The notes under the pieces: generated by a model
Database searches by the model: none
Told to the model about the DNA's origin: nothing
The model's input: only the letters and a program-made list of their open reading frames with translations
Shown here: piece by piece, positions 12,614 through 48,175 of the stretch
Numbering within the stretch: the stretch's first letter is position 1
Layout of the letters: every line of letters starts with the position of its first letter
Translations under genes and position numbers: made by a program
NCBI GenBank assembly: GCA_030621515.1
Contig: JAUXHN010000006.1
Location: forward strand, 1-52,214
Direction of reading: 5' to 3'
DNA length: 52,214 nucleotides
DNA from: Deltaproteobacteria bacterium
GTDB taxonomy: Bacteria > Myxococcota_A > Polyangia > JAAYKL01

Positions 12614-13666
12614 ATGACATATGTGCGATTTTCTTTGATTTTCTTGTTTGTGCTGTCAGGCACAAGCTTCGGCTCCTGTGACGACGATTCCCGCGAACGG
12701 GATCTGGAATCCGACGCCGATGCAGATTCCGATTCGGACGGCGATTCGGACTCGGACTCGGACACCGGTCCCACCGGTCCCATCGAGCAGGACTGCTCCG
12801 ATTGTCCCGCCGTGGGCATCACCATGGACAACATGCTGTGTGCGATAGATATCTGCAGCGAAGAGCTCGTTGTCTCGAACACCTACGCATCGCCGACCGC
12901 CTCGCCGGTGGACGGCACATACGAAGCGGTGGCTCATTTCGGGGCCGGGTCCAACGATCTGGCACCCAAGTTGAACGGGTCCTACGCGTTGATGGCGACC
13001 GGACCGGCCACGGGAACCGAGCATACCGAGGACGTGGGCGGCAACCCCGGAACCGATCCATACGCCAACGACGAGTACGCGGATACTCCCACCTACAACG
13101 AGATGGAATGGACCCTGGATCTCATCGCGCCGGAGCAGGCTCACGGTTTTTCGTTCAAATACGTTTTCTTTTCCGAAGAATACGATGAATTTATCGCCAC
13201 CCAGTACAACGACAAGCTCTACATATTCATCACGGCGGCGTCCACCAACGGCGGCGAGAAGTCGATACTCAACTTCACCGATTGCCGGGATCCGGAAGCC
13301 TATCACGATTTCGTCTGCGCGGCCGGCCAGACGGGATGCACCGAGGGCGAGAGATACTGCTACATCGCCATCAACTCGGCGCTCTCTGATTGCTGCTGGT
13401 ACAACGGTTGCCCGGATCCGCAGACCCCCACCGATATCACCGGCACCGGATACGAGTGCGCCCCGGATCAGGGTTCGGACGGCAATACCACCGGGTCATC
13501 CACCGGCTGGCTTATGACCTCCTGGCCCATCAACCCCGGCGAGACGTTCACCTTGACCTTCCACATCCACGACACTGGAGACGGAGTCTTCGATTCGGAA
13601 GTCATCCTGGACAGCTTCCAGTTCCTGTACGATTTCACCATCCCCGAGACATCACCCATCGAGTAA
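12614..13666 (+). CDS. Stalked lipoprotein with choice-of-anchor L domain
   Basis: A 350-residue protein. The signal sequence ends near Cys22 (FGSC, a weak lipobox). A stalk of alternating Asp with Ser or Ala runs from about residue 32 to 53 and ends in DTGP. The rest matches choice-of-anchor L domains: GTYEAVAHF-type strands, then FSFKYVFFSEEYDEF, YNDKLYIFI and, near the end, the EVILDSFQF strand. At least ten cysteines suggest disulfides. The domain is found on surface proteins bound to the envelope by various anchors; its function is not known. The ATG at 12614 follows an AAAGGA box. It lies 90 bases after the kinase gene. Confidence 0.85.
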   Translation: MTYVRFSLIFLFVLSGTSFGSCDDDSRERDLESDADADSDSDGDSDSDSDTGPTGPIEQDCSDCPAVGITMDNMLCAIDICSEELVVSNTYASPTASPVDGTYEAVAHFGAGSNDLAPKLNGSYALMATGPATGTEHTEDVGGNPGTDPYANDEYADTPTYNEMEWTLDLIAPEQAHGFSFKYVFFSEEYDEFIATQYNDKLYIFITAASTNGGEKSILNFTDCRDPEAYHDFVCAAGQTGCTEGERYCYIAINSALSDCCWYNGCPDPQTPTDITGTGYECAPDQGSDGNTTGSSTGWLMTSWPINPGETFTLTFHIHDTGDGVFDSEVILDSFQFLYDFTIPETSPIE

Positions 13667-13806
13667 CTCGGGGTCTCCCGGGATGGGGTTAAAAAAGTTA
13701 CTGAACGTCGTTTTGAAAAATCGGCTATACTGAAACGTAATGTCGTTCAAATGAGCTATTTGGTTCTTGTCGTGGCTCCCTATGTTCGTGAAAGGGAGGA
13801 ACATAG

Positions 13807-14547
13807 ATGAATAACGCCTGGAAGCTTGCTTTTGCAGTAACAACGCTGTGCTTTACCTGGCTGATCAGTTGCGCAACCGGTCCCGAGGCCTGGGATACTG
13901 AAGGCTATTGGGGATCGGAATCCGATTCTGATTCCGATTCTGACTCGGACTCTGATTCTGATTCCGATTCCGATTCTGATTCGGATTCCGATTCTGATTC
14001 CGATTCCGATTCTGATTCCGATTCTGACAGCGATACGGACTCCGATTCCGACACGGATACGGGCCCCGATCCCGGTGACCCATGTGAATCGCTGGACCTG
14101 AACTTCAACCCTTCCTGGGAGAGTTTCGAGGATCAGGTCCTGACGTTGACCAATCAGTATCGCGCCTCCGGGGCCAATTGCGGCACCTACGGTTCATTCG
14201 GGCCCACGGGTCCACTTACGATGCAGAGCCAACTTCGCAAGGCCGCGCGCCGGCACAGCTGGCACATGGGAGATCTCGGCTACTTTTCGCACGACAGCCC
14301 GGGAGGACCCTGCGGAAACGATTTCGTCCAGCGGATCCAGACGGCCGGATACACTAGCTATTCCACCGCCGGTGAAAACATCGCCGCGGGCCAGACGTCA
14401 CCCTCGCAGGTGGTCTCGGGCTGGATGGCGTCGGATGGGCACTGCAAGAATATCATGGCGCCGGCGTTCACCGAAATCGGCGTCGGCTACGCCCTCGTGC
14501 CCTCGAGCCCTTATGGGCACTACTGGACTCAGGACTTCGGCGGCTGA
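13807..14547 (+). CDS. Stalked lipoprotein with CAP (SCP/PR1) domain
   Basis: A 246-residue protein. Lipobox LISC gives a lipidated Cys22. Residues about 38-86 are an Asp-Ser stalk, changing to Asp-Thr and ending in DTGP. The head (residues 105-246) is a CAP domain like YkwD: TLTNQYRA, RRHSWHMGD, FSHDSPGG, the AGENIAAG motif, and YGHYWTQDFG. CAP proteins are secreted, some bind lipids or metal. The ATG at 13807 follows a GGGAGGAAC box. The 3' end overlaps the convergent dapB gene by 19 bases. Confidence 0.9.
   Translation: MNNAWKLAFAVTTLCFTWLISCATGPEAWDTEGYWGSESDSDSDSDSDSDSDSDSDSDSDSDSDSDSDSDSDSDSDTDSDSDTDTGPDPGDPCESLDLNFNPSWESFEDQVLTLTNQYRASGANCGTYGSFGPTGPLTMQSQLRKAARRHSWHMGDLGYFSHDSPGGPCGNDFVQRIQTAGYTSYSTAGENIAAGQTSPSQVVSGWMASDGHCKNIMAPAFTEIGVGYALVPSSPYGHYWTQDFGG
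13915..14064 (+). repeat. Hexanucleotide repeat coding for the Asp-Ser stalk
   Basis: The DNA is made of near-identical GAT/GAC plus TCC/TCT/TCG units, each giving Asp-Ser, about 24 dipeptides long. Slippage by one unit would lengthen or shorten the stalk by two residues without changing frame. Confidence 0.75.
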
Positions 14548-16390: not shown

Positions 16391-17758
16391 ATGAAGGAAT
16401 CCCCACAGACCGTGCTTACAGAAGTTGGAGACACCGCCATCAGCTACGGTGTGGACGGTCTTCCCCTGGTAGAGGAAATTCGGGTTCAACTGAAGGTGAC
16501 GATGGGGGTGGACTCCGGCAGTACGGTGGTGCTCCCACGGGCGGGGATCGTCGTGGGGGCCGGCACGGATGCCGGTTTCAAGATCGAGGACGCTTCGGTT
16601 TCCCGCAAGCACGCGCAGCTGGTACCGGTTCCCGGCGGGGTGCACGTATTGGATATGGGGAGCACGAACGGAACCGTCTTCGAAGGAGTGAGAATCTCCG
16701 AAAAGGTGGTTCCACTTGGCTCAACGCTGACCCTGGGCAAGGCGAAGATCGAGCTGATCAGGTTGGTGGACAGTCAGGTGCTGCCCCTGTCGCGCAGGAG
16801 AAAGTTCGGTGAGCTGATAGGTTCGTCCGAAATCATGCGCCGGGCCTACGCACTTCTCGAAAGAGCGGCGGAGGTGGACATCACTGTACTCCTCGAGGGC
16901 GAGACGGGCACCGGCAAGGAGCTGGCCGCCAAGGCGATACACAGGAACTCCGCTCGAGGTTCCAGGAACTTCCATATCGTGGACTGCGGAGCAGTGTCGC
17001 CGACGCTCATCGAGGCGGAGCTGTTCGGCCACGTTCGGGGATCCTTCACCGGAGCCGACCGGGATCGCGCCGGCGCGTTCGAGCACGCCCACCAGGGGAC
17101 CCTCTTCTTCGACGAGATCGGCGAATTGCCGCTCCCATTGCAACCCAAGCTCCTGCGGGCAATCGAGACTCGGGAAGTGCGCAGGATCGGCGGTTCGGTG
17201 CGAATTCCGGTCGACGTGCGATTCGTGGCTGCCACCAACAAGAACCTGTTCGAGGAGGTCAAGAAGGGCAGATTTCGCGAGGATCTCTACTACAGGCTCA
17301 ACGTCTTCAAGATCGTCTTGCCGCCCCTGCGCGAGCACAGGGACGATATACCGTTACTGGTGAAGCACTTCATGGAAATAGTGGGCGGACATCCCCTTTC
17401 CGACGAAATACTCGAACGCATGATGCAAATGGACTGGCCGGGCAATGTTCGGGAACTGAAGAACGCCGTGGACAGGGCGATAGTGCTCGCCCGTGGGGAG
17501 AAGCGGGTTGACGTTGCGACATCGCCAAAAGAGTCAGGCGATGAGACGACCGACCTCTCCGGGGTGAAGGTGGACACAACCAGGCCGTTCAAGGAAGTCA
17601 AGGCCGAGATAGTGTCCTGTTTCGAGTTGTCCTACCTGGTACAGGTTCTCGATCGAACCGGCGGGAATATCTCCGCCGCCGCGCGGGAGTCCGGGATCGA
17701 CCGCAAACACATGGAGCGCCTGATCCGCAAGCACCACATCGACATCAAGGCCCGCTAG
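16391..17758 (+). CDS. FHA-domain sigma54 enhancer-binding protein
   Basis: A 455-residue transcriptional activator. An FHA domain (about 35-125; SRKHAQL, GSTNG) replaces the usual receiver domain. The central AAA+ domain (about 138-370) has Walker A GETGTGKE, the sigma54-contact loop GSFTGAD (GAFTGA in most), Walker B FFDEIG and the arginine finger region FREDLYYRLNVF. A Fis-type helix-turn-helix (GNISAAARESGIDRKHMERL) ends the protein. It should open sigma54 promoters when its FHA domain binds a phosphothreonine protein; the kinase is not known. The ATG at 16391 is chosen because an excellent promoter lies just upstream; longer frames would run into dapA. Confidence 0.94.
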   Translation: MKESPQTVLTEVGDTAISYGVDGLPLVEEIRVQLKVTMGVDSGSTVVLPRAGIVVGAGTDAGFKIEDASVSRKHAQLVPVPGGVHVLDMGSTNGTVFEGVRISEKVVPLGSTLTLGKAKIELIRLVDSQVLPLSRRRKFGELIGSSEIMRRAYALLERAAEVDITVLLEGETGTGKELAAKAIHRNSARGSRNFHIVDCGAVSPTLIEAELFGHVRGSFTGADRDRAGAFEHAHQGTLFFDEIGELPLPLQPKLLRAIETREVRRIGGSVRIPVDVRFVAATNKNLFEEVKKGRFREDLYYRLNVFKIVLPPLREHRDDIPLLVKHFMEIVGGHPLSDEILERMMQMDWPGNVRELKNAVDRAIVLARGEKRVDVATSPKESGDETTDLSGVKVDTTRPFKEVKAEIVSCFELSYLVQVLDRTGGNISAAARESGIDRKHMERLIRKHHIDIKAR

Positions 17759-20938: not shown

Positions 20939-22249
20939 TCAGGCTTCGCGGGTCAGGTCGTCGAGGGCGGTGAGAGTCTGTTCGAGGGTAGAGATCTCAT
21001 CCAGATCCTGCTGGAGAAACGCGTCGATTCGCTCCCTGCGCGCAAGGGCGGTATCCGTGTCTCTCGACGATCCCTTTCGATATGCGCCCATCAGTATCAG
21101 GTCCTCGTTTTCGCCAAGCGCTCCTTGCAGGCGTCGAAGCGTGTCGGCGGTCTGCCGGTGCTTCCTGGAAACGATAGAGCCCATCACCCGGGAGATGGAT
21201 CTCACCACGTCTATGGCCGGCCAGCGTCCCGCGCCGGCGAGCCTGGCGGACAGGACGATGTGCCCGTCCAGTAGGGAGCGGGCCTCCTGGGCCACCGGAT
21301 CGTCATCGGTGCCCTCGGTGAGCACCGCATAGACGGCGGTGATGGATCCAACGCCGTCGCGCCCGGCGCGCTCGAGCATCGCGGGAAGGGAGGAAAAGGC
21401 GGAGACGGGAAATCCCGCCCGGGCGGGAGCCTCTCCCAGCGCGAGGGCGATATCCCGGCGGGCACGAACGACCCGCGTGAGCGAGTCCACGAGAAGAAGA
21501 GCGTGCTTCCCTTGCGATCGAAACCACTCGGCCACGGCGGTGGCGGTCTCCAGCGCCTGTACGCGAACGAGCGGCGGAGCGTCCGCAGAGGCGAGCACCA
21601 CCACCGAGCGGCCAAGCCCCTCCTCGCCGAGGATCCCGTCGACGAATTCCCTGACCTCGCGACCGCGCTCTCCCACCAGGCAGATCACGAACGCGTCGGC
21701 CGCGGCGTGCTTCGCCAGGGTGGCCAGAAGGGTGGACTTGCCCTCTCCGGGCCCGGCGAATAGCCCGATCCGCTGACCCTTTCCGATCGCCAGGCATCCG
21801 TCGATGGCCCTCAACCCGGTCACGAGTTGCTCGTCGATGGCGTCCCGCGACATGGGATCCGGCGCGGGGCGATGGAGGGGCCAGGGTTGCAGCTCGAAGG
21901 GTTGGGGGAGCCCGTCCAATGGAGCACCGAATGGGTCGATCACTCGTCCAATCAGGGCGTCGCCGCACGGGATTGTTCCGGCGGCTTCGACGATCTCCAC
22001 CCGATCGCCGACACCTATTCCGGTGGTGGGGGAAAGGGGCAGGAGCCTTGCCCGTTCTCCCTCGCAACGGGCCACTTCGGCGCGGATCACCGGTCCACCC
22101 GGTGTGGAGGACACCTCCACCCGATGACCGATGCGGGCACCGGGAAGGAGCGCTTCCAGGCCGAGCTCGTTCACGGAAATGATCTTTCCGGTTATACCCG
22201 CGAGGGAGCACGCCTCGACCTGCCTGGTCAGCTCATCGAAATCGACCAT
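20939..22249 (-). CDS. FliI/SctN-type secretion ATPase, orphan
   Basis: A 436-residue member of the flagellar/type III secretion ATPase family, which is related to F1-ATPase beta. Walker A is GPGEGKST, where most FliI proteins have GSGVGKS. Family segments are recognisable: EAPARAGFP, LPAMLERAG, SITAVYAVLTEG, ARSLLDGHIVLS and PAIDVVRSISRVM. The ATG at 22249 is preferred; it gives the short N-terminal domain typical of the family. These ATPases unfold and feed substrates into an export gate. No export-gate, rod, needle or flagellar gene is visible in the window, so the ATPase is an orphan here. It is the last gene of a seven-gene minus-strand run. Confidence 0.92.
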   Translation of the reverse strand: MVDFDELTRQVEACSLAGITGKIISVNELGLEALLPGARIGHRVEVSSTPGGPVIRAEVARCEGERARLLPLSPTTGIGVGDRVEIVEAAGTIPCGDALIGRVIDPFGAPLDGLPQPFELQPWPLHRPAPDPMSRDAIDEQLVTGLRAIDGCLAIGKGQRIGLFAGPGEGKSTLLATLAKHAAADAFVICLVGERGREVREFVDGILGEEGLGRSVVVLASADAPPLVRVQALETATAVAEWFRSQGKHALLLVDSLTRVVRARRDIALALGEAPARAGFPVSAFSSLPAMLERAGRDGVGSITAVYAVLTEGTDDDPVAQEARSLLDGHIVLSARLAGAGRWPAIDVVRSISRVMGSIVSRKHRQTADTLRRLQGALGENEDLILMGAYRKGSSRDTDTALARRERIDAFLQQDLDEISTLEQTLTALDDLTREA

Positions 22250-22259
22250 GGAAGAGTGG

Positions 22260-23351
22260 TTATCTCGAAATCCGTCTGCGGGCAATGACAATGATGCGCC
22301 GGGTGACGAGGGCGATGACCACGGCAAGGAGGACAACGAGGAATCTCATGGTTCCGCTCTGCGGGGCCTGGCTGCAGTCGAAGATCTCCTCGAGAATCGG
22401 CAGGGAGGGATCCATCCGGGCTATGTCCGCCCATTTGGAGTTGCAAAAATCGTTTTCCGCGTTGCACCCCGGCTCGTAGATCATCCAATCGTCGAAGAAA
22501 CGCTCCAGATCGACGGCCATGACGTCATCGTCCGAAGCAATGATCGCCAAAAAATCGGTGGTCGCTTCGAGCGCGCCGGCCGCGATATCGACGGCCTCCT
22601 TGTTGCAGCGGTCCATGGCCCACGAGTGGCGAAGCCCGTCACGATCCTGCTTGTAGCTGTACGATACAGCGTCCACGTAGTTGGCCACGTGGCGTATACG
22701 GTGGAGGTCGTCGCTTCGGATCGTGTGTGAAAAGGAGTCCTGCACCGCGTGTGTGGCGACACCCAGCAGGAATGCCGGGGCCCAGATCTTCACGTCGACC
22801 ATGCCGTAGAACTCGACGTAGAGGGGTATCTTCACCACCTGCTCGGCGGGTGAGCGATTCCTCGCTTCCCGCATGGCCTCCAGATTGGCCCGGATGAAAT
22901 CCAGGCCTCGTTCTATGGCGAGCTCGTTTCCGGCGGAGTAATCGTCGTTCACCTCCCGAAGGAAATGATCCTTCTGCCGGTGAGGATCCCTGTGCACCTC
23001 TCGAAGGGATTGCACGTTGGTTATCGACTTGCCGCGATTGTCCGGATATCTTGCTCCGATCATGAAACTCACGGTCGTGAACTCCTTCGCGTCGCTTTCG
23101 AACTCCAGGTTCATTGTGCGGGTGATGTAGTCACTGACCGCCTTCCAGACATCGTCGGTGGGAACCTGAACGGAAATATCGGGCTCAAAAAGACCGCTTG
23201 CGAAGAGGTCCTTCGCCGCGCGGTAGGTCATCTGCTCGTGGCACGGGTCGGTGAAACCGGTGTTTATCGTGTATGCCAGGGAATCGGAGGCGACCGTCAG
23301 GAAAAAGGCGGCGACCAGGCATATCCCCATCATGATCCGATGACGGCTCAC
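22260..23351 (-). CDS. Exported zinc phospholipase C/S1-P1 nuclease-like protein with C-terminal anchor
   Basis: A 363-residue protein. A signal peptide (cleaved near SLAYT) is followed by an all-helical domain with the metal-ligand pattern of the zinc phospholipase C/P1 nuclease fold: CHEQMT, KDHFLREVND and the signature LGVATHAVQDSFSHT. The C-terminus is a single membrane helix followed by a run of Arg (RRIIVIARRRISR), a tail-anchor like those used for surface sorting, though the exact MYXO-CTERM Cys motif is missing. The GTG at 23351 overlaps the previous stop by 4 bases and has a GGAGGTG box, which settles the start. Confidence 0.78.
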   Translation of the reverse strand: MSRHRIMMGICLVAAFFLTVASDSLAYTINTGFTDPCHEQMTYRAAKDLFASGLFEPDISVQVPTDDVWKAVSDYITRTMNLEFESDAKEFTTVSFMIGARYPDNRGKSITNVQSLREVHRDPHRQKDHFLREVNDDYSAGNELAIERGLDFIRANLEAMREARNRSPAEQVVKIPLYVEFYGMVDVKIWAPAFLLGVATHAVQDSFSHTIRSDDLHRIRHVANYVDAVSYSYKQDRDGLRHSWAMDRCNKEAVDIAAGALEATTDFLAIIASDDDVMAVDLERFFDDWMIYEPGCNAENDFCNSKWADIARMDPSLPILEEIFDCSQAPQSGTMRFLVVLLAVVIALVTRRIIVIARRRISR

Positions 23352-23926
23352 AGGGACACCTCCACGGTCAGCACCGTTCTGTATTCTATTTTTCTGATTC
23401 CCGGATCCCCGAGGACCGGCGCCAGGAGCGTTACGGACAGCGGGCTCACCTCCAGCGTAACCTTGCGGCTAACGGACCAGCGGAGGCTGATGGGTCGCAG
23501 GTCAAGGAAGAGGCCGGTGGTGCCTGCCTCGTCGAACACGGTATCGAACATCAGGGTAGACGTGCCGAAGGCGATACTCGATCGCACGCGATCATTGAAG
23601 GAGAGACGTTCCGCACCGGCGGCGAAGTTGAGAACGCCGTTGACGAGATCCAGATCCACCTCGCTGACCATCCAGAAATCCCGTTCGAATTGAACGAAGA
23701 CGCCCCATTTTTCCTTCCGCCAGCCCAGCCGTCCAGCGTATCCGAAGCCGCCGGCGATGTTGGAGTTCTCGGCGTCGTCGTTGAAAAAGGCGGCGAACTG
23801 CTCGATCTGGATGTACAGAGTGTGGTCCGGTGGGATCGTCACGTCATGGGCGACGCCCTTTGTCGAGTGGCAGATTAGGGCCAGAAGCACCGGTAATGCA
23901 GCAACGATGATTGACTGACTACGCAA
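23348..23926 (-). CDS. Outer-membrane-like protein, copy 2 of a tandem pair
   Basis: A 192-residue exported protein. After a signal peptide (ending near GVAHD) it is built of alternating amphipathic beta strands, consistent with an 8-stranded barrel or beta-sandwich. It aligns along most of its length with the next upstream protein (for example GYAGRLGWRK vs AYAGRIGWRK, SFNDRVRSSIA vs YFNDNMRISLA, YRTVLTVEV vs YRTVLLIDF). The start is TTG at 23926, supported by a GAGGA box 8 bases upstream. The stop overlaps the start of the phospholipase-like gene. Function unknown. Confidence 0.72.
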   Translation of the reverse strand: MRSQSIIVAALPVLLALICHSTKGVAHDVTIPPDHTLYIQIEQFAAFFNDDAENSNIAGGFGYAGRLGWRKEKWGVFVQFERDFWMVSEVDLDLVNGVLNFAAGAERLSFNDRVRSSIAFGTSTLMFDTVFDEAGTTGLFLDLRPISLRWSVSRKVTLEVSPLSVTLLAPVLGDPGIRKIEYRTVLTVEVSL

Positions 23927-23937
23927 CTTTCAAATCC

Positions 23938-24546
23938 TCATGTTTCAAAATCAATCAACAGCACGGTACGATAACTCATGTAGACAAGAGGGATACCCGT
24001 AAGCACCGGCACGACCATGGCAAAGGTGAAAGGATGAAGCTCGATGGACACAGCCTTTCCCGGCTTCCATCTGAACCCCGCAGGGCGAAAGTCGAAGAAG
24101 AAACCCGTCGAACCCGGAGCGTCCAGTTGTGACCGAGTCAACAATATGGAGGGGCCCGCCGCGAGGCTGATGCGCATGTTGTCGTTGAAGTAGCTGTACC
24201 CTGCGCCGAGTCCCAGATCCAGCACCTGCAATGACAGGCTGTCCTCGTCCGCGCTCTCGATATCTCGCCAGAAGCCGTGTTCGACCACCATGAACAGATC
24301 CCAGGGGGGTTTTCTCCAGCCGATTCGTCCGGCGTACGCAAACGATCCGAGCTTGGCGTTCCCCGAGATGAACTGGCCGAGGAAGGAGAGGTTGGTCTCC
24401 ACCTGGCCGAATAAATGGTTGTCAGGCGCCTCGGTCCGGTCCACGGCAGCGGTCTCCACGGAGTTGTCATCCGCTCCGATCTCCAACACTGGAAGCGTGC
24501 AAGAGAGAAGCGCTGTTGTGAAAGCGAGGTATCTATTGAGGCGCAT
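23938..24546 (-). CDS. Outer-membrane-like protein, copy 1 of a tandem pair
   Basis: A 202-residue exported protein with a signal peptide ending near LEIGADD. The mature part has about eight amphipathic strands and a GSTGFFFDFRPAGFRW segment that also appears, as GTTGLFLDLRPISLRW, in the downstream copy. The pair clearly comes from a duplication that has diverged widely. The ATG follows the yqgE stop with no gap (TGA-ATG), so it is read through coupling. No family was recognised. Confidence 0.72.
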   Translation of the reverse strand: MRLNRYLAFTTALLSCTLPVLEIGADDNSVETAAVDRTEAPDNHLFGQVETNLSFLGQFISGNAKLGSFAYAGRIGWRKPPWDLFMVVEHGFWRDIESADEDSLSLQVLDLGLGAGYSYFNDNMRISLAAGPSILLTRSQLDAPGSTGFFFDFRPAGFRWKPGKAVSIELHPFTFAMVVPVLTGIPLVYMSYRTVLLIDFET

Positions 24547-25122
24547 TCAGGCGTCGCCGACGATGGGAGCGATGTTGATGGGATCTATACCCAGGCTCGT
24601 GATTGCGCTGCGCCACTTGTCTTCGATGGGAACGTCGAATATCAGTTCGTGATTGCACGGTATGTTGATCCAGGCTCCTGTCTTGATCTCGGAAACCAGC
24701 TGGCCCGGTCCCCAGCCCGCATACCCCAGGCAGAACAGGTAACGTTCCGGTCCGCGCCCCTCCGAGATGTCTTTGAGGATCTCCCGGGACGCGGTGACCG
24801 CGATATTGTCTTCAAATACCCGAGTCTCGGGCCCATGCCACTCCGAGGAATGGAGGATCCAGCCAAGCTGCGGCGCCACCGGTCCGCCCATGAGGATCGG
24901 GGGATGCTCGGCCACTTCGATTGGGTTTTCGAGGACCAGTTCCATCTCGGTCAGCACGGTGGCCAGATCGATATTCGACAGCTGGTTGATAATGAGCCCG
25001 ATGGAACCTTCGTCGCTGTGCTCCATCATGAAGACCAATGTCTTCTCGAAGAACGGATCGCGCATGTGCGGCGCGGCTGCCAGAAAGCCGGGTGCGATTG
25101 TAGATTCCATTTGAGAAATCAT
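24547..25122 (-). CDS. yqgE: YqgE/AlgH family protein (UPF0301)
   Basis: A 191-residue cytoplasmic protein of the YqgE/AlgH family. The family pattern is complete: FLAAAPHMRDPFFEKTLV near the N-terminus, GSIGLIINQ, GGPV, and the signature LGYAGWGPGQL near residue 135. The biochemical role of the family is not settled. The ATG at 25122 has no clear ribosome binding site; an ATG four codons later is an alternative. The gene follows the IF-2B-related gene by 41 bases in the same operon. Confidence 0.93.
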   Translation of the reverse strand: MISQMESTIAPGFLAAAPHMRDPFFEKTLVFMMEHSDEGSIGLIINQLSNIDLATVLTEMELVLENPIEVAEHPPILMGGPVAPQLGWILHSSEWHGPETRVFEDNIAVTASREILKDISEGRGPERYLFCLGYAGWGPGQLVSEIKTGAWINIPCNHELIFDVPIEDKWRSAITSLGIDPINIAPIVGDA

Positions 25123-25163
25123 GCATCGAAAGCACGCTCAAGTCGAGCATGAGGTTTAGAATC

Positions 25164-26057
25164 TTACCCGAGAATCTGGCTTCGCAGTTTCGCGATTCCC
25201 TCTCCAACCTGGCCCGCTTCGGATGGAGAGAGGCGTCCCGATTCGGTTACTACGCTGTCCACCAGGTCCGGCGGCGTCACGTCGAAGAGCGGAGCGCTGG
25301 CCGTGACGCCCGGGGGCAGGTCTCCGAACAGATCGTCTGCCTTTTCTATGCGGGCATGCCGGTGCCCACCGAGCTTGATCCGTTGACAGGCAACAACGAA
25401 CGGCACGCCGTGATAACTTGCGGCTATCGCCATCGAGAAAGTGGAGCATCGATTGATGACCGATCCGTCGGCGAGCACCTGATCCGCTCCCACCAGCACC
25501 AGTCTGGATCCCTTCACCGCCGTGGGGAGGGCCCCGTCCGGGAAAACCTCCACCTCGAGGCCGCGAGCCGCCAGCCAACCCGCCGCCTTCAGGCCGTCGC
25601 CGAGTCGGTGACCCTCGCCGATGCGAATTGAATCGGGCTGAAGGGCCACGAGCGCGCTCATTGCCGTGACGCTCCAGGAGCAGGACACGATACAACCGCC
25701 ACAACCTATCTCGCGGCTGGCCAGGTTGGCGATTGTCAGGTTTGCCTGCCCGAGGATCTCGCGCTCGGTTCTGGTGGCGCGGATGAGGGCTGCTCCCGGT
25801 TGAAGGCCGCTCGCCATGAGGGACCTGGTTCGAGAAGCGGCGAAGACGGCCTGGGTTCCTATGGCCGACATGGAGGGTCTCAGGCTGTCCAGAACAGTGA
25901 CCGTAGCGACGATGATCTCCATGGCCTGTTCGGGATCATCCGGCAGATCGGACGAGATGGAATCCAGAGCGTCGAGGCCTCTCAGGGCGAGGGAAGTAGC
26001 GCCGTCGGACTTGTCGCCGCGGATCTCGTCGAAAAGTTTGTGGGTTTCATTGTTCAC
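25164..26057 (-). CDS. IF-2B-related (eIF2B alpha/ribose-bisphosphate isomerase-like) protein
   Basis: A 297-residue protein of the initiation factor 2B alpha/beta/delta superfamily. The C-terminal half has the family core: VLVGADQVLADGSVINR, FSMAIAASYHGVPFVVAC and FDVTPPDLVDSVVTE. In bacteria such proteins include methylthioribose-1-phosphate isomerase and ribose-1,5-bisphosphate isomerase, sugar-phosphate isomerases with a Cys-Asp pair. The Asp of GADQ is present; whether the Cys in CSWS serves as the catalytic Cys is not certain. It follows the TPR gene by 9 bases. The substrate cannot be assigned. Confidence 0.85.
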   Translation of the reverse strand: MNNETHKLFDEIRGDKSDGATSLALRGLDALDSISSDLPDDPEQAMEIIVATVTVLDSLRPSMSAIGTQAVFAASRTRSLMASGLQPGAALIRATRTEREILGQANLTIANLASREIGCGGCIVSCSWSVTAMSALVALQPDSIRIGEGHRLGDGLKAAGWLAARGLEVEVFPDGALPTAVKGSRLVLVGADQVLADGSVINRCSTFSMAIAASYHGVPFVVACQRIKLGGHRHARIEKADDLFGDLPPGVTASAPLFDVTPPDLVDSVVTESGRLSPSEAGQVGEGIAKLRSQILG

Positions 26058-26066
26058 AGGACTTGT

Positions 26067-27356
26067 TCAGGGGTGTTTGGACTTGCATACGGCCTTGCGC
26101 TTCACGATGCTGCCGGCGGAGAGTCCGATCATATCGCCCTTGAGCGCGTTGTCGTAGTGGACCTGACCGGCGGCGTAGAGGCGCCGTTCGCAAGCGATGT
26201 CACCCAGGTACATGTGGGCGAGGGAAAGAGCGGGTTTGAGGTTGATCGCCTGCTTGAGGTAGCTGTTGGCGCTGGTGTAGCGGCCGAGTCGGAAATAGGT
26301 CTCGCCCGTGTGCAGGTACACCCGGACCACTCCGGGGGCCACGGCCTTGGCATTGTCGAGGGCTTCCAGGGAGGCGTCGGAGTTACCGTTTGCGTACTCG
26401 ATGTCGGCCAGCAGGAGGTATGCGTCCACCAGATTTGGAACCAGTTCGATGGCTGCTTCGAGTTCCTTCTTGGAATCCATAGGCTTCTTCAGCCCGAACA
26501 ACGCCTTGCCCAGGCCCAGGTGTGCGGTGCCGCTTTTTACCTTGGAAGAGGAGATCGCCGATTCGAAGGCGGACTTTGCCGCGTTGAAGTCGGCATTCTC
26601 GAGCAGGATCTCGCCGAGCTCCGCGTAGGCCGCGGTCCAATTGGGCCTTATGGCGATTGCCGTCTGCATGTGGGAGACCGCTTCCGCTCCCTTGCCAAGG
26701 ACCCTGGCGTAGTGAAAGTGCGCTTCGCAGGATGCCGGCTCCAGGGTGGTCGCCTGTTTCAATGAGGAGAGGGCCGCGGCGGTGTCGCCGTTGGATTCCT
26801 GCGATAGACCCAGACCCAGACGGGCGATGTAGCCCGCGCCTGCCGTGAGGGCCTCCTGGTACTCTGTAATTGCAATTCCGTCGTCGGCGCGACGCCTGTG
26901 GGCCTCCGCCATGCCGGTCTTGCCGCGGGAGATATCGCCCTTGGCGATGGCCTTCTGGAATTCGTCCATGGCGCGTGCCGAACGATCGAATGTCAGCCAG
27001 AGCCAGCCGGCGCAGACTTCGCCGACGCTCTCGCTCTTGTGACGCCGCCACACTCCCCGGCATGCCTTCTTCGCTTTCTCGAGCTTGCCCCTGGTAATGT
27101 CGATACGGGCGAGCCCGAACTCGGCGTTTCCGTATTTGGCTTCGAGCTTGAGCGCGGCCTTGTAGGAGGCCTTCGCCTCGTCCAGCCTCATGGCTTCCAG
27201 GTAAAGGTCCCCCAGAGCGACAAGCTCGGCGGCACTGGCGGTGCTCATGGAGGCCGCCTTTGTGTCGAGCGGGCTGTTGCCGGCCGCCGCATTGCCGGAT
27301 GTCATCATCGCCGTGGTGACAATGATCATGCCGAATAGCATATTGCGCATGCGCAT
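26067..27356 (-). CDS. Exported TPR-repeat protein
   Basis: A 429-residue protein. A signal peptide (ending GNAAAG) precedes about ten helical TPR units (LVALGDLYLEAMRLDEAKASYKAAL is the first clear one), so it is a periplasmic scaffold or chaperone-like protein. The final residues are basic. The ATG at 27356 has a GAGGAGGAAC box; a start seven codons upstream lies in front of that box and is less likely. It is the first gene of the seven-gene minus-strand run that ends with the FliI-like ATPase. Confidence 0.85.
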   Translation of the reverse strand: MRMRNMLFGMIIVTTAMMTSGNAAAGNSPLDTKAASMSTASAAELVALGDLYLEAMRLDEAKASYKAALKLEAKYGNAEFGLARIDITRGKLEKAKKACRGVWRRHKSESVGEVCAGWLWLTFDRSARAMDEFQKAIAKGDISRGKTGMAEAHRRRADDGIAITEYQEALTAGAGYIARLGLGLSQESNGDTAAALSSLKQATTLEPASCEAHFHYARVLGKGAEAVSHMQTAIAIRPNWTAAYAELGEILLENADFNAAKSAFESAISSSKVKSGTAHLGLGKALFGLKKPMDSKKELEAAIELVPNLVDAYLLLADIEYANGNSDASLEALDNAKAVAPGVVRVYLHTGETYFRLGRYTSANSYLKQAINLKPALSLAHMYLGDIACERRLYAAGQVHYDNALKGDMIGLSAGSIVKRKAVCKSKHP

Positions 27357-27471: not shown

Positions 27472-30400
27472 TCAATCATCTTTTCGCGGAACCACCAGAA
27501 AGTGATCCACCTCGAATTTTCCACCGGACGCGTTCTTCTGTTCCAGCTTGATCTCGTGCTTTCCGCGCAACCAGAAATCGGCCACCGTGTCGATGCGGTA
27601 TTCTTCCATTGTGGCGCGAAGGACCGCCTCGCCGGCGACCACGCCGTCGACGGTTATGCGAAGGGTGGTCCGCTCGGTGTTGTCCGGGTCCAGATGCCGC
27701 GCTCGAATGAATACGACGGCGCCGCCCGGCGCGCTGGCCTCGATCTCCAGGGTTGCCTCGGATCCGATGGTGGCGCAGGTGGTGCGACCCATGAACTCGC
27801 CTGGAACCACCCTCTCCCTGGACGTGCATTTACCCCAGCCGTTCTTGAGAGCGGTAGCCTTCTCTTGAATGTCCGTGCCGAACAACAAGCCCTTTTCGAT
27901 GGCTCCGAGTCTGATGAGGGCCTCCGAGGTCCATTTGATTTCCGGTTCCTCGTCAAGGATCCTCATAAACTTGGATGTGGCTCCCTCCAACTCCAGCCAG
28001 CCCAGAGCGACCACGGCGTAGCCCCTGATATCCGTGTGGGTCTCGTGCTCGAGCACGTCCATTAGCGTGTCGAATGCGCGCGGATCCCCGATCTTGCCCA
28101 GGGCCAGCACCGAGAGATAGCGCGTGCGATCCTCGGCGATGGTTTCGATCAGCGGCTCAGTCGCGCGCGGGTCCCGCAGATCTCCCAGGAGCCTGATAGC
28201 GTTCTCCCGAACCTTGAGATCGTTTCTTCCGAGGGCCTCTATGAGCACCGGGACCGCCGCCAGGTCGCCCAGTTTTCCCAGGGAGATCGCCGCCAGGTCC
28301 CTGATGCTCGGATCGTCGTCATAGAGCGCGGCCCTGAGCAGATTGCGCCCGTCGTCGTTGTTGACCGCGGCCAGGGCGAGCGCCGCGAAAAGCCCGATCT
28401 CGTCCTCCCGGTCTTCAAGAAGCGCGATCATCTGCGGGATGGATCTCCACGCCTTTATGTCGGCCAGCAATTGCAAGGCCTCAACACGGTCTTTCAGAGG
28501 AGCCCCGTTGTTCTGCGCGACTGCCAACAACCCGGGAATGGAGCGCTTGTCTCGCATCCTTCCCAGGTTGATCGCCGTGCGCGCGGCGTCTTCTCCTCGG
28601 CTGATTTCGTCCAGCCAGCCGTAGGTTTCCTGCAGGAGCTCGTCGGCTATCTTCTTGTGCTTGTCGTACCGGTTGACCTTCTCGGCCGGATCGGTCTCAA
28701 GGTTGTACAGTTCATACAGGCCGCGCGAGGGATCGGAAATGAGCTTCCACGGCCACATCAAAGCCATGTGACGGCGCATCACCGAGGAGAACACAGGCTT
28801 GTCCACGTGTGCGTCGTCTCCCCCGTATATGGCGGGTCTCAGATCCTGGCCGACCATATGGGTGGGGGGCTCGACGCCGAGGAGCTTGAGAACGGTAGGG
28901 GCGATATCCACCAGGGAAACGGGCGCCTTGATGCGGCCCGGCCTGGCGCCGGGAACCTTGATGAGGAGCGGGACGCGCACCTGCTCTTCGAACAGAGTCG
29001 ACCCATGGTAGTGCCCGCCGTGATCCTTGAACTCTTCGCCGTGGTCCGCCGTGAACACGATTATCGTGTCCCGGGCCAGCTTGCTCTCGATATAGTCGAG
29101 CAGGCGGCCGACCTCCCGATCCGCCTCCGCTATTTCCCCCTCGTATCGGTCCATGGGTGAGGTACCGAAGCGCTCCGACTTGTACGGCTCGTGGACGTTG
29201 AAATAATGGACCCATGAAAAGAACGCGGGTTCTTCCAGGCCGATAAGCCGGTCCATTTCGGCGATAGCGTTGTCGGTGAGTTTGCCCGGGGGCGGCGCAC
29301 CGTGGTTGGCGATTTCGAAACCGAACTTGTTTGTACGGTAGTGACCGACCCTGTCACCCTGCGTGAAGAAAATGCCCTGCGTATAGAAGCCGGAGGTCTT
29401 GTAATTTGCATCGCGAAGGATCTTCGCGATGGTCGGGTGGGAAATCTCCACACCCAGCATGGCCTCGTCGTGGGTGTAGTGGGACGTGTGAAACGACGTG
29501 ATCGAGTAAGAGCTGTGAGGGGCAGCGCAATACGCTCGTTCGAAGACCGTGGCCGTCTTTGCCCATTTGTCCAGGCGGGGTGACAGATCGCGCCTGGTGT
29601 AACCGTAGAGCCCCAGCCTGTCGGCTCGAAGCGCGTCCACGGTAATGAGGACCAAATGCGCGCCGGGGAATACGGGGAAGTCACCGGAGGTCGAAGCCTG
29701 CATGGCCAGGCGTTCCCGTTCGTAGCGAAGCCTTCGGGTGTCTGCGGACGGGCGCGGCCCCTCCCCCACCTTTCGCGGGCCGGCTGTGATGAGCAGCACA
29801 TTGGCGGTGGTCGCCGTACGTTCGTACACCGCCACCTTCACCACCTGGCGCCTGTCCATCAGAACACAGGCCAGGATCGCCAGGATCGCGCAGGCGACAA
29901 GGCAGATGAACCCTATCTTCGAGCCGGTGATCCGCGCGAATCGTGTAAACACCACCAGGCGCAGAGCCAGGGCGAACCCGCCGAGAGTGCCCACGGCGAG
30001 CAGGACGTGCAGGTAGAGGTACAATCGGCGGTACATGTGAGCGTCGCACCAGCGCATGCCGAGCGCGCCCAGGACCAGGGCCAGAGAGACGAGGAGCAGC
30101 CAGATCCTTGTCTTGCGACCGCGTTCGTCCGCGACGGATACGATCGCGATCATCGCTCGAGCGGCGCCGGCTGCCAGCACAATCATCAACAGGGCCACCG
30201 CGCCGATCAGAAAAGGGCGGGCGGGAAGTTGAGAGGTGACCCCGCCCTGAAAGAGGCGCATGGATATGTAAACGAGGCCGGGAGCCGTGATCCCGACGAT
30301 GGCCAGCGCGGCGCCCGTACCCGATGAGCGCCGGAGTTTGCGGGCGGCGGCGCCACCCAGGAGCGCGACGCCCCAGGCGATGAGGGAGAGCAGCGCTCCG

Positions 30401-30591
30401 GCCAGGGTGAGCCGGCCGAGGATTCCGAGTGCCAGCAGAGCAATCGAGCCGGCTCCTTCGATGTCCCCCCAGGCCTGGCGCAGATCCAGGGCGGAGGCGA
30501 TGACGCCGGCGGTCGCGCCGGAGAGGATCGCCGCGAAAACTCCTTTGAGTTTCAGTGAATTGGCAGTGTTTGATAGGTTAGACTGGTTCAT
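27472..30591 (-). CDS. Polytopic membrane sulfatase-like hydrolase fused to HEAT repeats
   Basis: A 1039-residue protein in four parts. Residues 1-265 hold about seven or eight membrane helices. Residues about 310-640 form an alkaline-phosphatase-superfamily sulfatase domain (VLITVDALRADRLGLYGY, TADHGEEFKDHGGHYHG). Residues 660-900 are HEAT/PBS repeats (DRVEALQLLADI, IRDLAAISLGKLGD, VRENAIRLLGDL). A small beta domain ends the protein. The nucleophile region reads CAAPHSSYS instead of the C/S-x-P-x-R motif needed for formylglycine, so a Ser or Thr nucleophile, as in lipid phosphotransferases, is more likely. I chose the ATG at 30591; a TTG at 30609 is possible. Neither has a clear ribosome binding site. 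tRNA-Cys ends 23 bases upstream. Confidence 0.85.
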   Translation of the reverse strand: MNQSNLSNTANSLKLKGVFAAILSGATAGVIASALDLRQAWGDIEGAGSIALLALGILGRLTLAGALLSLIAWGVALLGGAAARKLRRSSGTGAALAIVGITAPGLVYISMRLFQGGVTSQLPARPFLIGAVALLMIVLAAGAARAMIAIVSVADERGRKTRIWLLLVSLALVLGALGMRWCDAHMYRRLYLYLHVLLAVGTLGGFALALRLVVFTRFARITGSKIGFICLVACAILAILACVLMDRRQVVKVAVYERTATTANVLLITAGPRKVGEGPRPSADTRRLRYERERLAMQASTSGDFPVFPGAHLVLITVDALRADRLGLYGYTRRDLSPRLDKWAKTATVFERAYCAAPHSSYSITSFHTSHYTHDEAMLGVEISHPTIAKILRDANYKTSGFYTQGIFFTQGDRVGHYRTNKFGFEIANHGAPPPGKLTDNAIAEMDRLIGLEEPAFFSWVHYFNVHEPYKSERFGTSPMDRYEGEIAEADREVGRLLDYIESKLARDTIIVFTADHGEEFKDHGGHYHGSTLFEEQVRVPLLIKVPGARPGRIKAPVSLVDIAPTVLKLLGVEPPTHMVGQDLRPAIYGGDDAHVDKPVFSSVMRRHMALMWPWKLISDPSRGLYELYNLETDPAEKVNRYDKHKKIADELLQETYGWLDEISRGEDAARTAINLGRMRDKRSIPGLLAVAQNNGAPLKDRVEALQLLADIKAWRSIPQMIALLEDREDEIGLFAALALAAVNNDDGRNLLRAALYDDDPSIRDLAAISLGKLGDLAAVPVLIEALGRNDLKVRENAIRLLGDLRDPRATEPLIETIAEDRTRYLSVLALGKIGDPRAFDTLMDVLEHETHTDIRGYAVVALGWLELEGATSKFMRILDEEPEIKWTSEALIRLGAIEKGLLFGTDIQEKATALKNGWGKCTSRERVVPGEFMGRTTCATIGSEATLEIEASAPGGAVVFIRARHLDPDNTERTTLRITVDGVVAGEAVLRATMEEYRIDTVADFWLRGKHEIKLEQKNASGGKFEVDHFLVVPRKDD

Positions 30592-33329: not shown

Positions 33330-34640
33330 ATGAATAGGCTAACGTGGTTGTTGTGCCTCGTAGCGTTGTTGGCCTCCTGCAACTTCTACAAGACCCTGAC
33401 CGCTGCCGACGCGGGAAATACGGACACCGATGCGGACACCGATACGGACACTGATACTGACACCGATACTGACACTGATACTGATACTGACACTGATACT
33501 GACACGGACTCTGATACTGATACCGATACGGACACTGATACCGGCCCGGTTTGTGTTTCGATTCCCAACTGGACGGAGCATTCGGTGGATGGAGCATTCG
33601 GTGGCGCCTATTCGGTATACGCGGCGGACGTTGACGGAGACGGCGACATGGATGTGCTCGGCGCGGCTTCGGGAAACGATGACATCACATGGTGGGAGAA
33701 CACGGCCGGTGACGGGTCAATCTGGGTCGAGCGAACGGTGGATGGGGCATTCAACGGCGCCTATTCGGTATACGCAGCGGATGTTGACGGAGACGGCGAC
33801 ATGGATGTGCTCGGCGCGGCATACAACGCAGACGACATCACATGGTGGGAGAACACCACGGGCGACGGTACCGCCTGGACCGAGCACCCGGTGGATGGGT
33901 CATTCAACGGCGCCTATTCGGTATACGCCGCCGATGTTGACGGAGACGGCGACATGGACGTGCTCGGCGCGGCAGAATTTGTAAACGACATCGCCTGGTG
34001 GGAGAACACTGCGAGCGACGGTACCGCCTGGACAGAGCACATGGTGGATGGGGAATACGGCGGCGCCAGGTCGGTATACGCGGCGGACATCGATGGAGAC
34101 GGTGACATGGACGTACTCGGCGCGGCCTATGACAACGACGACATCACCTGGTGGGAGAACACTGCGGGTGACGGCACTGCCTGGACCGAGCACACGGTGG
34201 CCGGGGCATTCGATGGCGCCTGGTCGGTATACGCGGCGGACATTGACGGAGACGGCGACATGGACGTGCTCGGCGCGGCCTATGACAACGACGACATCAC
34301 CTGGTGGGAGAACACCGCAGGCGACGGCAGCGCATGGACCGATCATATGGTGGATGGGGAATTCAATGGCGCCTGGTCGGTTTACGCTGCCGATGTTGAC
34401 GGCGACGGCGACATGGACGTGCTCGGCGCGGCGCTGGATGCCGATGACATCACATGGTGGGAGAACACTTCGGGTAACGGTACCGCCTGGGCCGAGCATA
34501 CAGTGGATGGAGCATTCGATGGCGCCAGTTCGGTATTCGCGGCGGACATCGATGGAGACGGCGACATGGACGTGCTCGGCGCGGCATACAACGCCGATGA
34601 AATTACCTGGTGGGAGAGCGATTGTATTTCGGTGAGGTAG
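33330..34640 (+). CDS. Stalked lipoprotein with a seven-bladed VCBS/FG-GAP propeller
   Basis: A 436-residue protein. Lipobox LASC gives lipidated Cys17. An Asp-Thr stalk (about residues 30-70) ends in DTGP. The head is exactly seven repeats of 51 residues, from about residue 81 to the C-terminus. Each has SVYAAD[VI]DGDGDMDVLGAA, a Ca2+-binding DxDGDGDxD loop, and ends with W-W-E-N. Seven units match a closed propeller; a Cys just before the first and one after the last blade could close the ring by a disulfide. The start follows the previous stop with no gap. It is predicted to display a Ca2+-stabilised adhesion head on the surface. Confidence 0.9.
   Translation: MNRLTWLLCLVALLASCNFYKTLTAADAGNTDTDADTDTDTDTDTDTDTDTDTDTDTDTDSDTDTDTDTDTGPVCVSIPNWTEHSVDGAFGGAYSVYAADVDGDGDMDVLGAASGNDDITWWENTAGDGSIWVERTVDGAFNGAYSVYAADVDGDGDMDVLGAAYNADDITWWENTTGDGTAWTEHPVDGSFNGAYSVYAADVDGDGDMDVLGAAEFVNDIAWWENTASDGTAWTEHMVDGEYGGARSVYAADIDGDGDMDVLGAAYDNDDITWWENTAGDGTAWTEHTVAGAFDGAWSVYAADIDGDGDMDVLGAAYDNDDITWWENTAGDGSAWTDHMVDGEFNGAWSVYAADVDGDGDMDVLGAALDADDITWWENTSGNGTAWAEHTVDGAFDGASSVFAADIDGDGDMDVLGAAYNADEITWWESDCISVR
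33420..33548 (+). repeat. Hexanucleotide repeat coding for the Asp-Thr stalk
   Basis: GAT/GAC plus ACT/ACC/ACG units give about 20 Asp-Thr dipeptides, interrupted by one Asp-Ala and one Asp-Ser. The repeat has the same phase and length class as the Asp-Ser repeats elsewhere in the window. Confidence 0.75.
33570..34640 (+). repeat. Seven tandem 153-bp repeats (propeller blades)
   Basis: The units start at 33570, 33723, 33876, 34029, 34182, 34335 and 34488. They are highly similar in DNA, which points to recent amplification or continuing homogenisation by recombination. Spacing is strictly 153 bp. Confidence 0.9.
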
Positions 34641-47652: not shown

Positions 47653-47913
47653 ATGGACCGTTTGAATGCCAGCGAAGCACGTAGTGATTTTGCGGATGTG
47701 CTCAATCGAGTGGCCTATCGTGGAGAGCGAATCGTGCTCCATCGTCGCGGCAAGGACGTCGCGGCGATTGTATCGGTTGAAGACTTGAAGCTTTTGGAGC
47801 AGCTCGAAGACGAGAGAGACTTGAAGATGGCCAGGGCGGCGCTCAAAGAAGCCGAGAAGAAAGGCACAAAGAAACTTGCTTCTCTCATGAAGGAGCTCGG
47901 TGACTCGAGATAG
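47653..47913 (+). CDS. Type II antitoxin, Phd/YefM family
   Basis: An 86-residue protein. The N-terminal 55 residues are the Phd/YefM DNA-binding dimerisation domain (NASEARSDFADVLNRVAYRGERIVLHRRGKDVAAIVS). The rest is a charged helix that would wrap around the toxin. The ATG at 47653 follows an AGAGGGGAG box. The toxin gene overlaps its end by 14 bases. Confidence 0.93.
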   Translation: MDRLNASEARSDFADVLNRVAYRGERIVLHRRGKDVAAIVSVEDLKLLEQLEDERDLKMARAALKEAEKKGTKKLASLMKELGDSR

Positions 47914-48175
47914 GTCTTTGGTATACACAATCGAAATCGCGCCGGCGGCAGAGCGGGCTATCAAAAAGCTGCCTGCCGATGTGCGTAAACGAATATTCAA
48001 GTCTTTGATTTCTTTGGAACGGGATCCACGCCCGCATAAAGTCAAGAAATTGAGCGGCGAACTTGATCTGTATCGGCTCCGGATCGGTGACTATCGGATC
48101 GTCTACCAGGTTAAAGATGCCGTGCTTGTGGTCGTGGTGGTGAAGGTCGGTCATCGACGTGAAGTGTATCGCTGA
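47900..48175 (+). CDS. Type II toxin, RelE/ParE family
   Basis: A 91-residue toxin: a short first helix (PAAERAIKKLPADVRKRI), then the strand motifs VKKLSGELDLYRLRIGDYRIVYQV and a C-terminal VVVKVGHRREVYR. RelE-type members cut mRNA on the ribosome with Arg and His residues, which are present in GDYRIVY and GHRREVY. The start is GTG with an AAGGAG box inside the antitoxin gene. With the antitoxin it forms a complete pair. Confidence 0.93.
   Translation: MTRDRSLVYTIEIAPAAERAIKKLPADVRKRIFKSLISLERDPRPHKVKKLSGELDLYRLRIGDYRIVYQVKDAVLVVVVVKVGHRREVYR

What the first reader, a model, noticed from the sequence alone, without database searches (positions are those of the whole stretch)
20939..27356. 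Orphan FliI/SctN-type ATPase at the end of an envelope-protein operon
Seen: a minus-strand run of seven genes with very small gaps: TPR protein, IF-2B-like protein, YqgE, two paralogous outer-membrane-like proteins, anchored phospholipase/nuclease-like protein, FliI-like ATPase. Known: FliI/SctN ATPases normally sit in flagellar or type III secretion clusters. None of those genes is visible. Inference: the ATPase may power export of the operon's own substrates, or act with a distant apparatus.
Basis: partly seen in the sequence, partly recalled or inferred. Interest (0 to 1): 0.66.

Follow-up and report, generated by a model that had tools for sequence, protein, structure and literature searches.

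The report
ATPase of a scattered protein-export machine
The "orphan" ATPase is most likely the motor of a stripped-down type III (flagellum-like) protein-export machine whose other genes exist in this bacterium but are scattered singly around the genome, and two of its key substrate-handling parts have been cut away.

Summary
In detail: seven minus-strand genes with gaps of 53 bases or less end in an intact FliI/SctN-family ATPase (20939-22249), and no flagellar or type III gene lies in the window, which is a whole contig. "Orphan" holds only locally. The same genome encodes SctV, FliO-SctR, SctS-SctT, SctU, SctJ and SctQ homologues, in single copy, on six other contigs, and no canonical flagellar FlhA or FliF. 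In relatives of the same class a flagellar FliI/FlhA set coexists with this second, non-flagellar set. There the gate genes fliO-sctRSTU form one operon between ribosomal genes and priA, with sctN(-sctL) and sctV elsewhere. In the window's family even the gate operon is broken up, SctU lost its autoprotease (switch) domain, and SctV lost subdomains SD1-SD2 (chaperone docking). SctN, SctV and SctR remain under purifying selection. The operon's own TPR, barrel and phospholipase proteins carry Sec signals, so they are unlikely substrates. Best reading: a dispersed, reduced relative of the myxobacterial needle-less type III system (T3SS*), possibly for prey contact. Dispersed YscRSTUV genes induced during predation were already listed, without comment, in Bradymonas. 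Substrate, outer-membrane exit and function are unproven.

The parts
20939..22249 (-). sctN: FliI/SctN-family ATPase of the non-flagellar set (436 aa; possible longer TTG start at 22336)
   Evidence: Pfam/NCBIfam, PDB relatives, tree, invariant catalytic residues, dN/dS 0.10-0.14
22260..23351 (-). Zn-dependent phospholipase C / S1-P1 nuclease-like protein, signal peptide and C-terminal membrane anchor
   Evidence: PF00882 E=1.7e-7; conserved in G004, G005, G012, G013 at 37-38% identity
23348..23926 (-). outer-membrane barrel paralogue 2 (192 aa)
   Evidence: 35% identical to paralogue 1; aligned
23938..24546 (-). outer-membrane barrel paralogue 1 (202 aa), predicted 8-stranded
   Evidence: AlphaFold2 pLDDT 78.9; Foldseek OmpX 1.8e-6, NspA 6.8e-6, OmpA 9.9e-6
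24547..25110 (-). YqgE/AlgH
   Evidence: PF02622 1e-45; next to the ATPase also in G003
25164..26057 (-). IF-2B/MtnA-like sugar-phosphate isomerase-type protein, inserted only in the window's genus
   Evidence: PF01008 9e-22; found only in G000-G002 among held loci
26067..27356 (-). periplasmic TPR protein, first gene of the operon
   Evidence: Pfam TPRs; conserved at 36-40% identity in four other genomes of the family
16412..17758 (+). FHA-sigma54 activator (NtrC-type), convergent neighbour kept near sctN in G001, G002, G006, G009; possible regulator
   Evidence: 59-94% identity

Best explanation
The gene is sctN of a dispersed, non-flagellar type III export apparatus. Shown by sequence: a catalytically intact hexameric-type ATPase, plus single-copy SctR, SctS, SctT, SctU, SctV, SctJ and SctQ homologues elsewhere in the same genome (FliO next to SctR shown in the same-genus genome G002). 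Inferred: these proteins assemble after separate expression into an inner-membrane export gate (SctRST pore, SctU membrane part, SctV proton-driven ring) with an SctJ ring and an SctQ docking platform. SctN then feeds and unfolds substrates into the gate by ATP hydrolysis, while the proton-motive force, through the conserved charged residues of SctV, drives transport. SctU has no switch domain and SctV has no SD1-SD2, so there is probably no early/late substrate switch and no classical chaperone docking: the gate would handle one class of substrate, not build a needle or hook. By analogy with T3SS* of Myxococcus and the predation-induced YscRSTUV of Bradymonas, the most likely role is contact-dependent export during interaction with other bacteria. 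That last step is inference only.
For: (1) Partners found in the own genome: SctV C64, SctR C275, SctU C127, SctJ C222, SctS-SctT C3, SctQ C276. (2) The ATPase sits outside the flagellar FliI clade (25 rows, 93/94) and outside classical SctN (100/98), among 31 non-flagellar ATPases of the same class; its family clade has 100/100. (3) G000-G002 and G004 have no flagellar FlhA or FliI detected yet keep this set, so it does not serve a flagellum. (4) Class-wide gene order ribosomal operon-fliO-sctR-S-T-U-(galU)-priA (L211, L212, L213, L217, L218); the window genome's sctU still abuts priA, which ties it to that operon. (5) sctN is preceded by a FliH/SctL homologue in several genomes outside the family. 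(6) Catalytic Glu, Walker B Asp and Arg finger invariant and Walker A GxGKS intact in 31 rows. (7) dN/dS: SctN 0.10-0.14, SctV 0.14, SctR 0.07. (8) SctV keeps R142, R149, D153, D203, matching by spacing Salmonella FlhA R147, R154, D158, D208 (PMC7911332). (9) Genomes lacking any FlhA match (G008, G033, G041) also lack any FliI/SctN-like ATPase. (10) T3 inner-membrane genes up-regulated in predation in Bradymonas (PMC7460792).
Against: No SctL, SctO, SctD, needle or substrate was identified in the own genome; SctL was sought only in held loci, the others not at all. Physical assembly of the scattered proteins is not shown. In family f7, G043 and G051 keep SctV/SctR homologues but show no SctN-like ATPase, and G019 likewise, so the pairing is not strict. 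SctU evolves faster (dN/dS 0.385). Direct orthology with M. xanthus T3SS* was not tested because its sequences could not be fetched. The tree does not firmly join all non-flagellar class ATPases (deep split 88/32).
Confidence: 0.72

Rival explanations
1. Relic: the apparatus is decaying, and the ATPase lingers or has a moonlighting role.
For: Missing SctV SD1-SD2, missing SctU switch domain, gene order dissolved; SctU dN/dS 0.385.
Against: The set is a separate paralogue, not leftover flagellar genes. It persists across many families, and SctN, SctV and SctR are under strong purifying selection with intact catalytic and proton-path residues. The same truncations are fixed in three species of the genus.
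Confidence: 0.12
2. The ATPase works with its operon partners (YqgE, two barrels, PLC, TPR) in an envelope-maintenance or outer-membrane process rather than in type III export.
For: Conserved order TPR-YqgE-barrel-barrel-PLC-ATPase in seven genomes. The operon holders examined are also those whose SctV lacks SD1-SD2, which could mean a changed job in this lineage.
Against: G003, G006, G007 and G009 keep the orthologous ATPase without the operon (only YqgE in G003), and outside the family it neighbours SctL and housekeeping genes. The operon proteins are Sec-exported and need no cytosolic ATPase of this type. Type III gate genes are retained in the same genomes.
Confidence: 0.1
3. Ordinary flagellar FliI displaced from its cluster.
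For: The FliI clade-1 model scores almost as high as SctN (477 v 479 bits).
Against: No canonical FlhA or FliF and only single divergent gate genes in a 96% complete genome; tree placement outside FliI, whose own orthologues exist in sister genera.
Confidence: 0.03

Closest known systems
Needle-less T3SS* of Myxococcus xanthus (MXAN_2434-2464) and the 'Myxo' short/long NF-T3SS loci (PMC3459982, PMC10433427, PMC12075869)
   Same: Non-flagellar SctRSTUV, SctJ, SctQ and SctN; FliO beside SctR (FliO in Myxococcota non-flagellar systems: PMC12403147); no flagellar rod/hook context
   Different: There one conserved cluster; here at least seven separate loci. SctV lacks SD1-SD2 and SctU lacks its switch domain here; SctL, SctD and LcrH-type chaperones not found or not sought
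YscRSTUV export-apparatus genes of Bradymonas sediminis (PMC7460792; called needle-less T3SS* in PMC11509652)
   Same: Locus tags DN745_01900, 10315, 17280, 03325 and 00480 are far apart, so the gate genes look dispersed there too; up-regulated during predation
   Different: Authors do not comment on dispersal or domain loss; ATPase context not described in the text read; sequences not compared here
Scattered NF-T3SS of Chlamydiales (PMC3459982)
   Same: Type III genes spread over several loci
   Different: Chlamydial systems are spread over about four loci and include a secretin; here mostly single genes
Flagellar export apparatus FlhA/FlhB/FliPQR/FliHIJ
   Same: Homologous gate, ATPase and FliO
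   Different: No canonical flagellar FlhA or FliF in this genome; separate paralogue group

Membership tests
FliI/SctN (YscN) ATPase family | ATP-synt_ab core, T3SS_ATPase_C domain, TIGR01026 over cut-off, Walker A/B, catalytic Glu, Arg finger | tested here: met
FliI or SctN equivalog proper | score over an NCBIfam equivalog cut-off | tested here: not met
   best 478.6 bits against cut-off 604.75 (SctN) and 476.9 against 619.1 (FliI)
Non-flagellar type III export apparatus (Myxo type / T3SS*) | SctR, S, T, U, V present in the same genome | tested here: met
   (SctU only as its membrane part)
Non-flagellar type III export apparatus (Myxo type / T3SS*) | SctJ and SctQ present | tested here: met
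   SctJ YscJ_FliF 4e-13; SctQ FliMN_C 2e-20 and TIGR02551 3e-23 though below its cut-off
Non-flagellar type III export apparatus (Myxo type / T3SS*) | genes in one conserved locus | tested here: not met
   spread over seven contigs; also dispersed in relatives with 20-100 contigs
Non-flagellar type III export apparatus (Myxo type / T3SS*) | no secretin | tested here: inconclusive
   PilQ and GspD explained; one stand-alone 415-aa secretin on C209 resembles SctC weakly (94 bits, cut-off 238)
Non-flagellar type III export apparatus (Myxo type / T3SS*) | no needle (SctF), SctD and LcrH-type chaperones present | not tested
Non-flagellar type III export apparatus (Myxo type / T3SS*) | proteins orthologous to M. 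xanthus MXAN_2434-2464 | not testable with these tools
Injectisome / flagellar substrate switching | SctU/FlhB cytoplasmic autoprotease with NPxH site | tested here: not met
   SctU ends after 231 aa with no NPxH; corresponding sites in full-length class homologues are NPTH, NPDH or NPV
Injectisome / flagellar export gate | SctV/FlhA cytoplasmic domain with SD1-SD4 | tested here: not met
   0 of 75 and 3 of 50 residues aligned to SD1/SD2; model matches FlhA_C/SctV_C over about 190 residues only
Flagellum | canonical FlhA and FliF genes | tested here: not met
   only divergent single-copy homologues in the own genome; rod and hook genes not searched

The most novel reading that the evidence does not exclude
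A whole class of bacteria keeps a working type III export machine encoded as scattered genes. In one family it has shed both the FlhA/SctV chaperone-docking subdomains and the FlhB/SctU switch domain, giving a minimal inner-membrane ATPase-plus-gate translocase with new substrates and a borrowed or absent outer-membrane exit.
Probability: 0.5. Interest if true: 0.8.

Novelty: new variant of a known kind. Interest (0 to 1): 0.62.

Why it matters
Type III machines are almost always encoded in clusters and are detected by clustering, so a dispersed version is easily missed or written off as orphan genes. If this set works, it shows how little of FlhA and FlhB is needed for export, separates transport from substrate switching and chaperone docking, and offers a natural minimal system for asking what the ATPase does. 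It also extends the myxobacterial needle-less system, whose mechanism in predation is an open question, to lineages where it was not recognised.

Tried and rejected
Flagellar FliI displaced from its cluster: rejected by the tree and by missing flagellar paralogues. Full type III cluster next door: the window is the whole contig, and flanks of orthologues on longer contigs show none. Dispersal as an assembly artefact: rejected, since relatives with 20-100 contigs show the same split (G055: sctN C4, sctV C3, sctRSTU C6). Truncations as sequencing errors: rejected, same ends in G000-G002. Barrels as a secretion channel: the model is an 8-stranded OmpX/NspA-like barrel, too narrow by known examples. 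Operon holders as one clade in the ATPase tree: rejected at p=0.0005 without G010, not rejected with G010 included (p=0.29), so one origin stays possible. The Lon tree could not root the family. SctL in own loci held: none found. Literature for a dispersed type III system in Polyangia, Sorangium or Haliangium: no direct description found.
Full report
Observation. The seven-gene minus-strand run is real. The last gene encodes a FliI/SctN-family ATPase: ATP-synt_ab 2e-70, T3SS_ATPase_C 1.5e-20, subfamily model TIGR01026 over its cut-off, all FliI and SctN equivalog models under theirs. The nearest solved relative by sequence is a flagellum-specific ATP synthase, 2dpy. The window is the complete contig C95 of a 4.64 Mb, 346-contig, 96% complete genome.

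Partners elsewhere. The own genome holds one FHIPEP protein (C64), one FliP (C275), one Bac_export_2 (C127), one Bac_export_1 (C3), one YscJ_FliF (C222) and one SpoA protein (C276), none on the window contig. Gene calling around each shows single genes among unrelated neighbours, except SctS-SctT adjacent (L049:9162-10183, followed by a BamA-like gene) and, in G002, FliO next to SctR. Family searches name them SctV, SctR, SctS/FliQ, SctT/FliR, SctU, SctJ, SctQ and FliO. The other ATP-synt_ab hits in the genome are an adjacent pair on C217, read as rotary ATP synthase subunits, and one on C235, read as Rho from its lower score (these two names are my reading).

Class-wide picture. All 59 genomes searched have at least one ATP-synt-type match, and 54 have FlhA-type genes. 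Many carry a canonical FlhA (690-710 aa, around 800 bits or more) together with a second, more divergent one. In the 18 relatives' loci inspected the second one has no other type III gene beside it. The ATPase tree separates flagellar FliI (20 class rows with 5 references, 93/94), classical SctN references (100/98) and 31 other class ATPases including the window's. The window family forms a 100/100 clade. The deepest split is weakly supported (88/32), so I claim only that the window ATPase is neither in the flagellar nor in the classical SctN group. Genomes with few contigs show real dispersal: G055 (20 contigs) has sctN on C4, sctV on C3, sctRSTU on C6; G049 (30 contigs) has sctN on C3, sctV and sctU on C12, sctR on C18; G030, G029 and G032 behave alike.

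Ancestral order and its breakdown. In five class members the gate genes run fliO-sctR-sctS-sctT-(sctU) beside the ribosomal protein operon or upstream of galU and priA (L211, L212, L213, L217, L218; names by position and family). In the window family fliO-sctR sits beside lon, in the window genome sctST sits beside bamA, and sctU still abuts priA. The last point ties the short SctU to the ancestral operon.

Domain losses. SctU of the window genome is 231 aa, ends after the membrane part and has no NPxH site; full-length class homologues have NPTH, NPDH or NPV at that place. Matches ending at or before profile position 244 recur in G001-G004, G007, G010, G032, G052 and G055. SctV of G000, G002, G004, G005, G012 and G013 lacks FlhA subdomains 1 and 2 entirely (the G004 gene runs off its contig further downstream). 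An AlphaFold model (mean pLDDT 67; cytoplasmic part about 80) matches the cytoplasmic domains of FlhA and SctV over about 190 residues at about 2.5 A, which corresponds to SD3-SD4. In known systems chaperone-substrate complexes dock between SD2 and SD4 and at the D1-D2 dimple, and the FlhB cytoplasmic domain switches substrate class (PMC8213127, PMC7911332). The inferred consequence is loss of ordinary docking and switching. The charged residues linked to proton coupling are conserved by spacing.

Is it alive? Catalytic residues are conserved throughout. dN/dS between species of the genus is 0.10-0.14 for SctN, 0.14 for SctV, 0.07 for SctR, 0.385 for SctU; Lon and PriA give 0.05 and 0.10. The set persists without a detected flagellar set in G000-G002 and G004. 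This argues against a relic, most weakly for SctU.

The operon. The order TPR-YqgE-barrel-barrel-PLC-ATPase is shared with G004, G005, G012 and G013. The barrels model as 8-stranded OmpX/NspA/OmpA-like proteins. TPR, barrels and PLC begin with Sec-type signal sequences, so they are unlikely type III substrates (sequence reading plus established knowledge). Operon holders and SD1-SD2-less SctV coincide in the genomes examined, and a single origin is not rejected once G010 is included (p=0.29). Why this operon captured sctN is unexplained.

Exit through the outer membrane. The genome has PilQ, a GspD-like secretin in a type II operon, and a stand-alone 415-aa secretin on C209 whose best model is SctC at 94 bits against a cut-off of 238. 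Whether this secretin belongs to the dispersed system, to a Tad system, or to neither is open.

Comparison with the known. Myxococcales have short and long non-flagellar loci lacking secretin and needle (PMC3459982); the M. xanthus T3SS* acts in prey lysis (PMC10433427, PMC12075869). In Bradymonas sediminis the YscRSTUV genes bear widely spaced locus tags and are induced in predation (PMC7460792); the authors do not discuss dispersal. So dispersal in this phylum has a trace in print, while the class-wide ancestral order, its break-up and the SctV and SctU domain losses were not found in the papers read. I place it as a new variant of a known kind.

Limits. Names of held genomes are hidden, so assignment to Myxococcota rests on record titles ('Deltaproteobacteria bacterium') and gene content. 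SctD, SctI, SctO, SctF and Tad genes were not searched. Family f7 genomes with SctV but no SctN-like ATPase show the pairing is not absolute.

Noticed in passing
L235:9918-11165 (own genome C209): Stand-alone 415-aa secretin, best model SctC (94 bits, cut-off 238), weak Tad-type N domain, beside a barrel-like protein and a Lon-like AAA protein; could be the exit of the dispersed system.
   Followed up: partly
window 16412-17758: FHA-sigma54 activator kept close and convergent to sctN in G001, G002, G009 and near it in G006; possible regulator.
   Followed up: partly
class relatives, L211, L212, L213, L217, L218: Export-gate operon fliO-sctRST(U) sits between the ribosomal protein operon and priA across several families.
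   Followed up: yes
L096:9086-10546 and L098:9240-10787: SctN with an extra N-terminal segment, weakly SctL-like, where other genomes have a separate SctL upstream; possible partial SctL-SctN fusion.
   Followed up: partly
G019, G043, G051 (family f7): SctV (and SctR) homologues present with no FliI/SctN-like ATPase detected: possibly a gate running without ATPase.
   Followed up: no
L082:2059-6247 and L083:6817-7971 against window 25111-25163: The IF-2B/YqgE junction carries different inserted genes in G002 and G001 but none in the window genome: an insertion hot spot inside the operon.
   Followed up: no
window 27472-30591: Large membrane sulfatase fused to HEAT repeats, upstream of the operon, conserved in G001.
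   Followed up: no
window 12614-14547, 33330-34640, 50976-52214: Lipoproteins with long Asp-Ser/Asp-Thr repeat linkers after the signal peptide, very common in this genome.
   Followed up: no
window 47653-48175: Phd/YefM-like and RelE-like toxin-antitoxin gene pair (by sequence reading).
   Followed up: no
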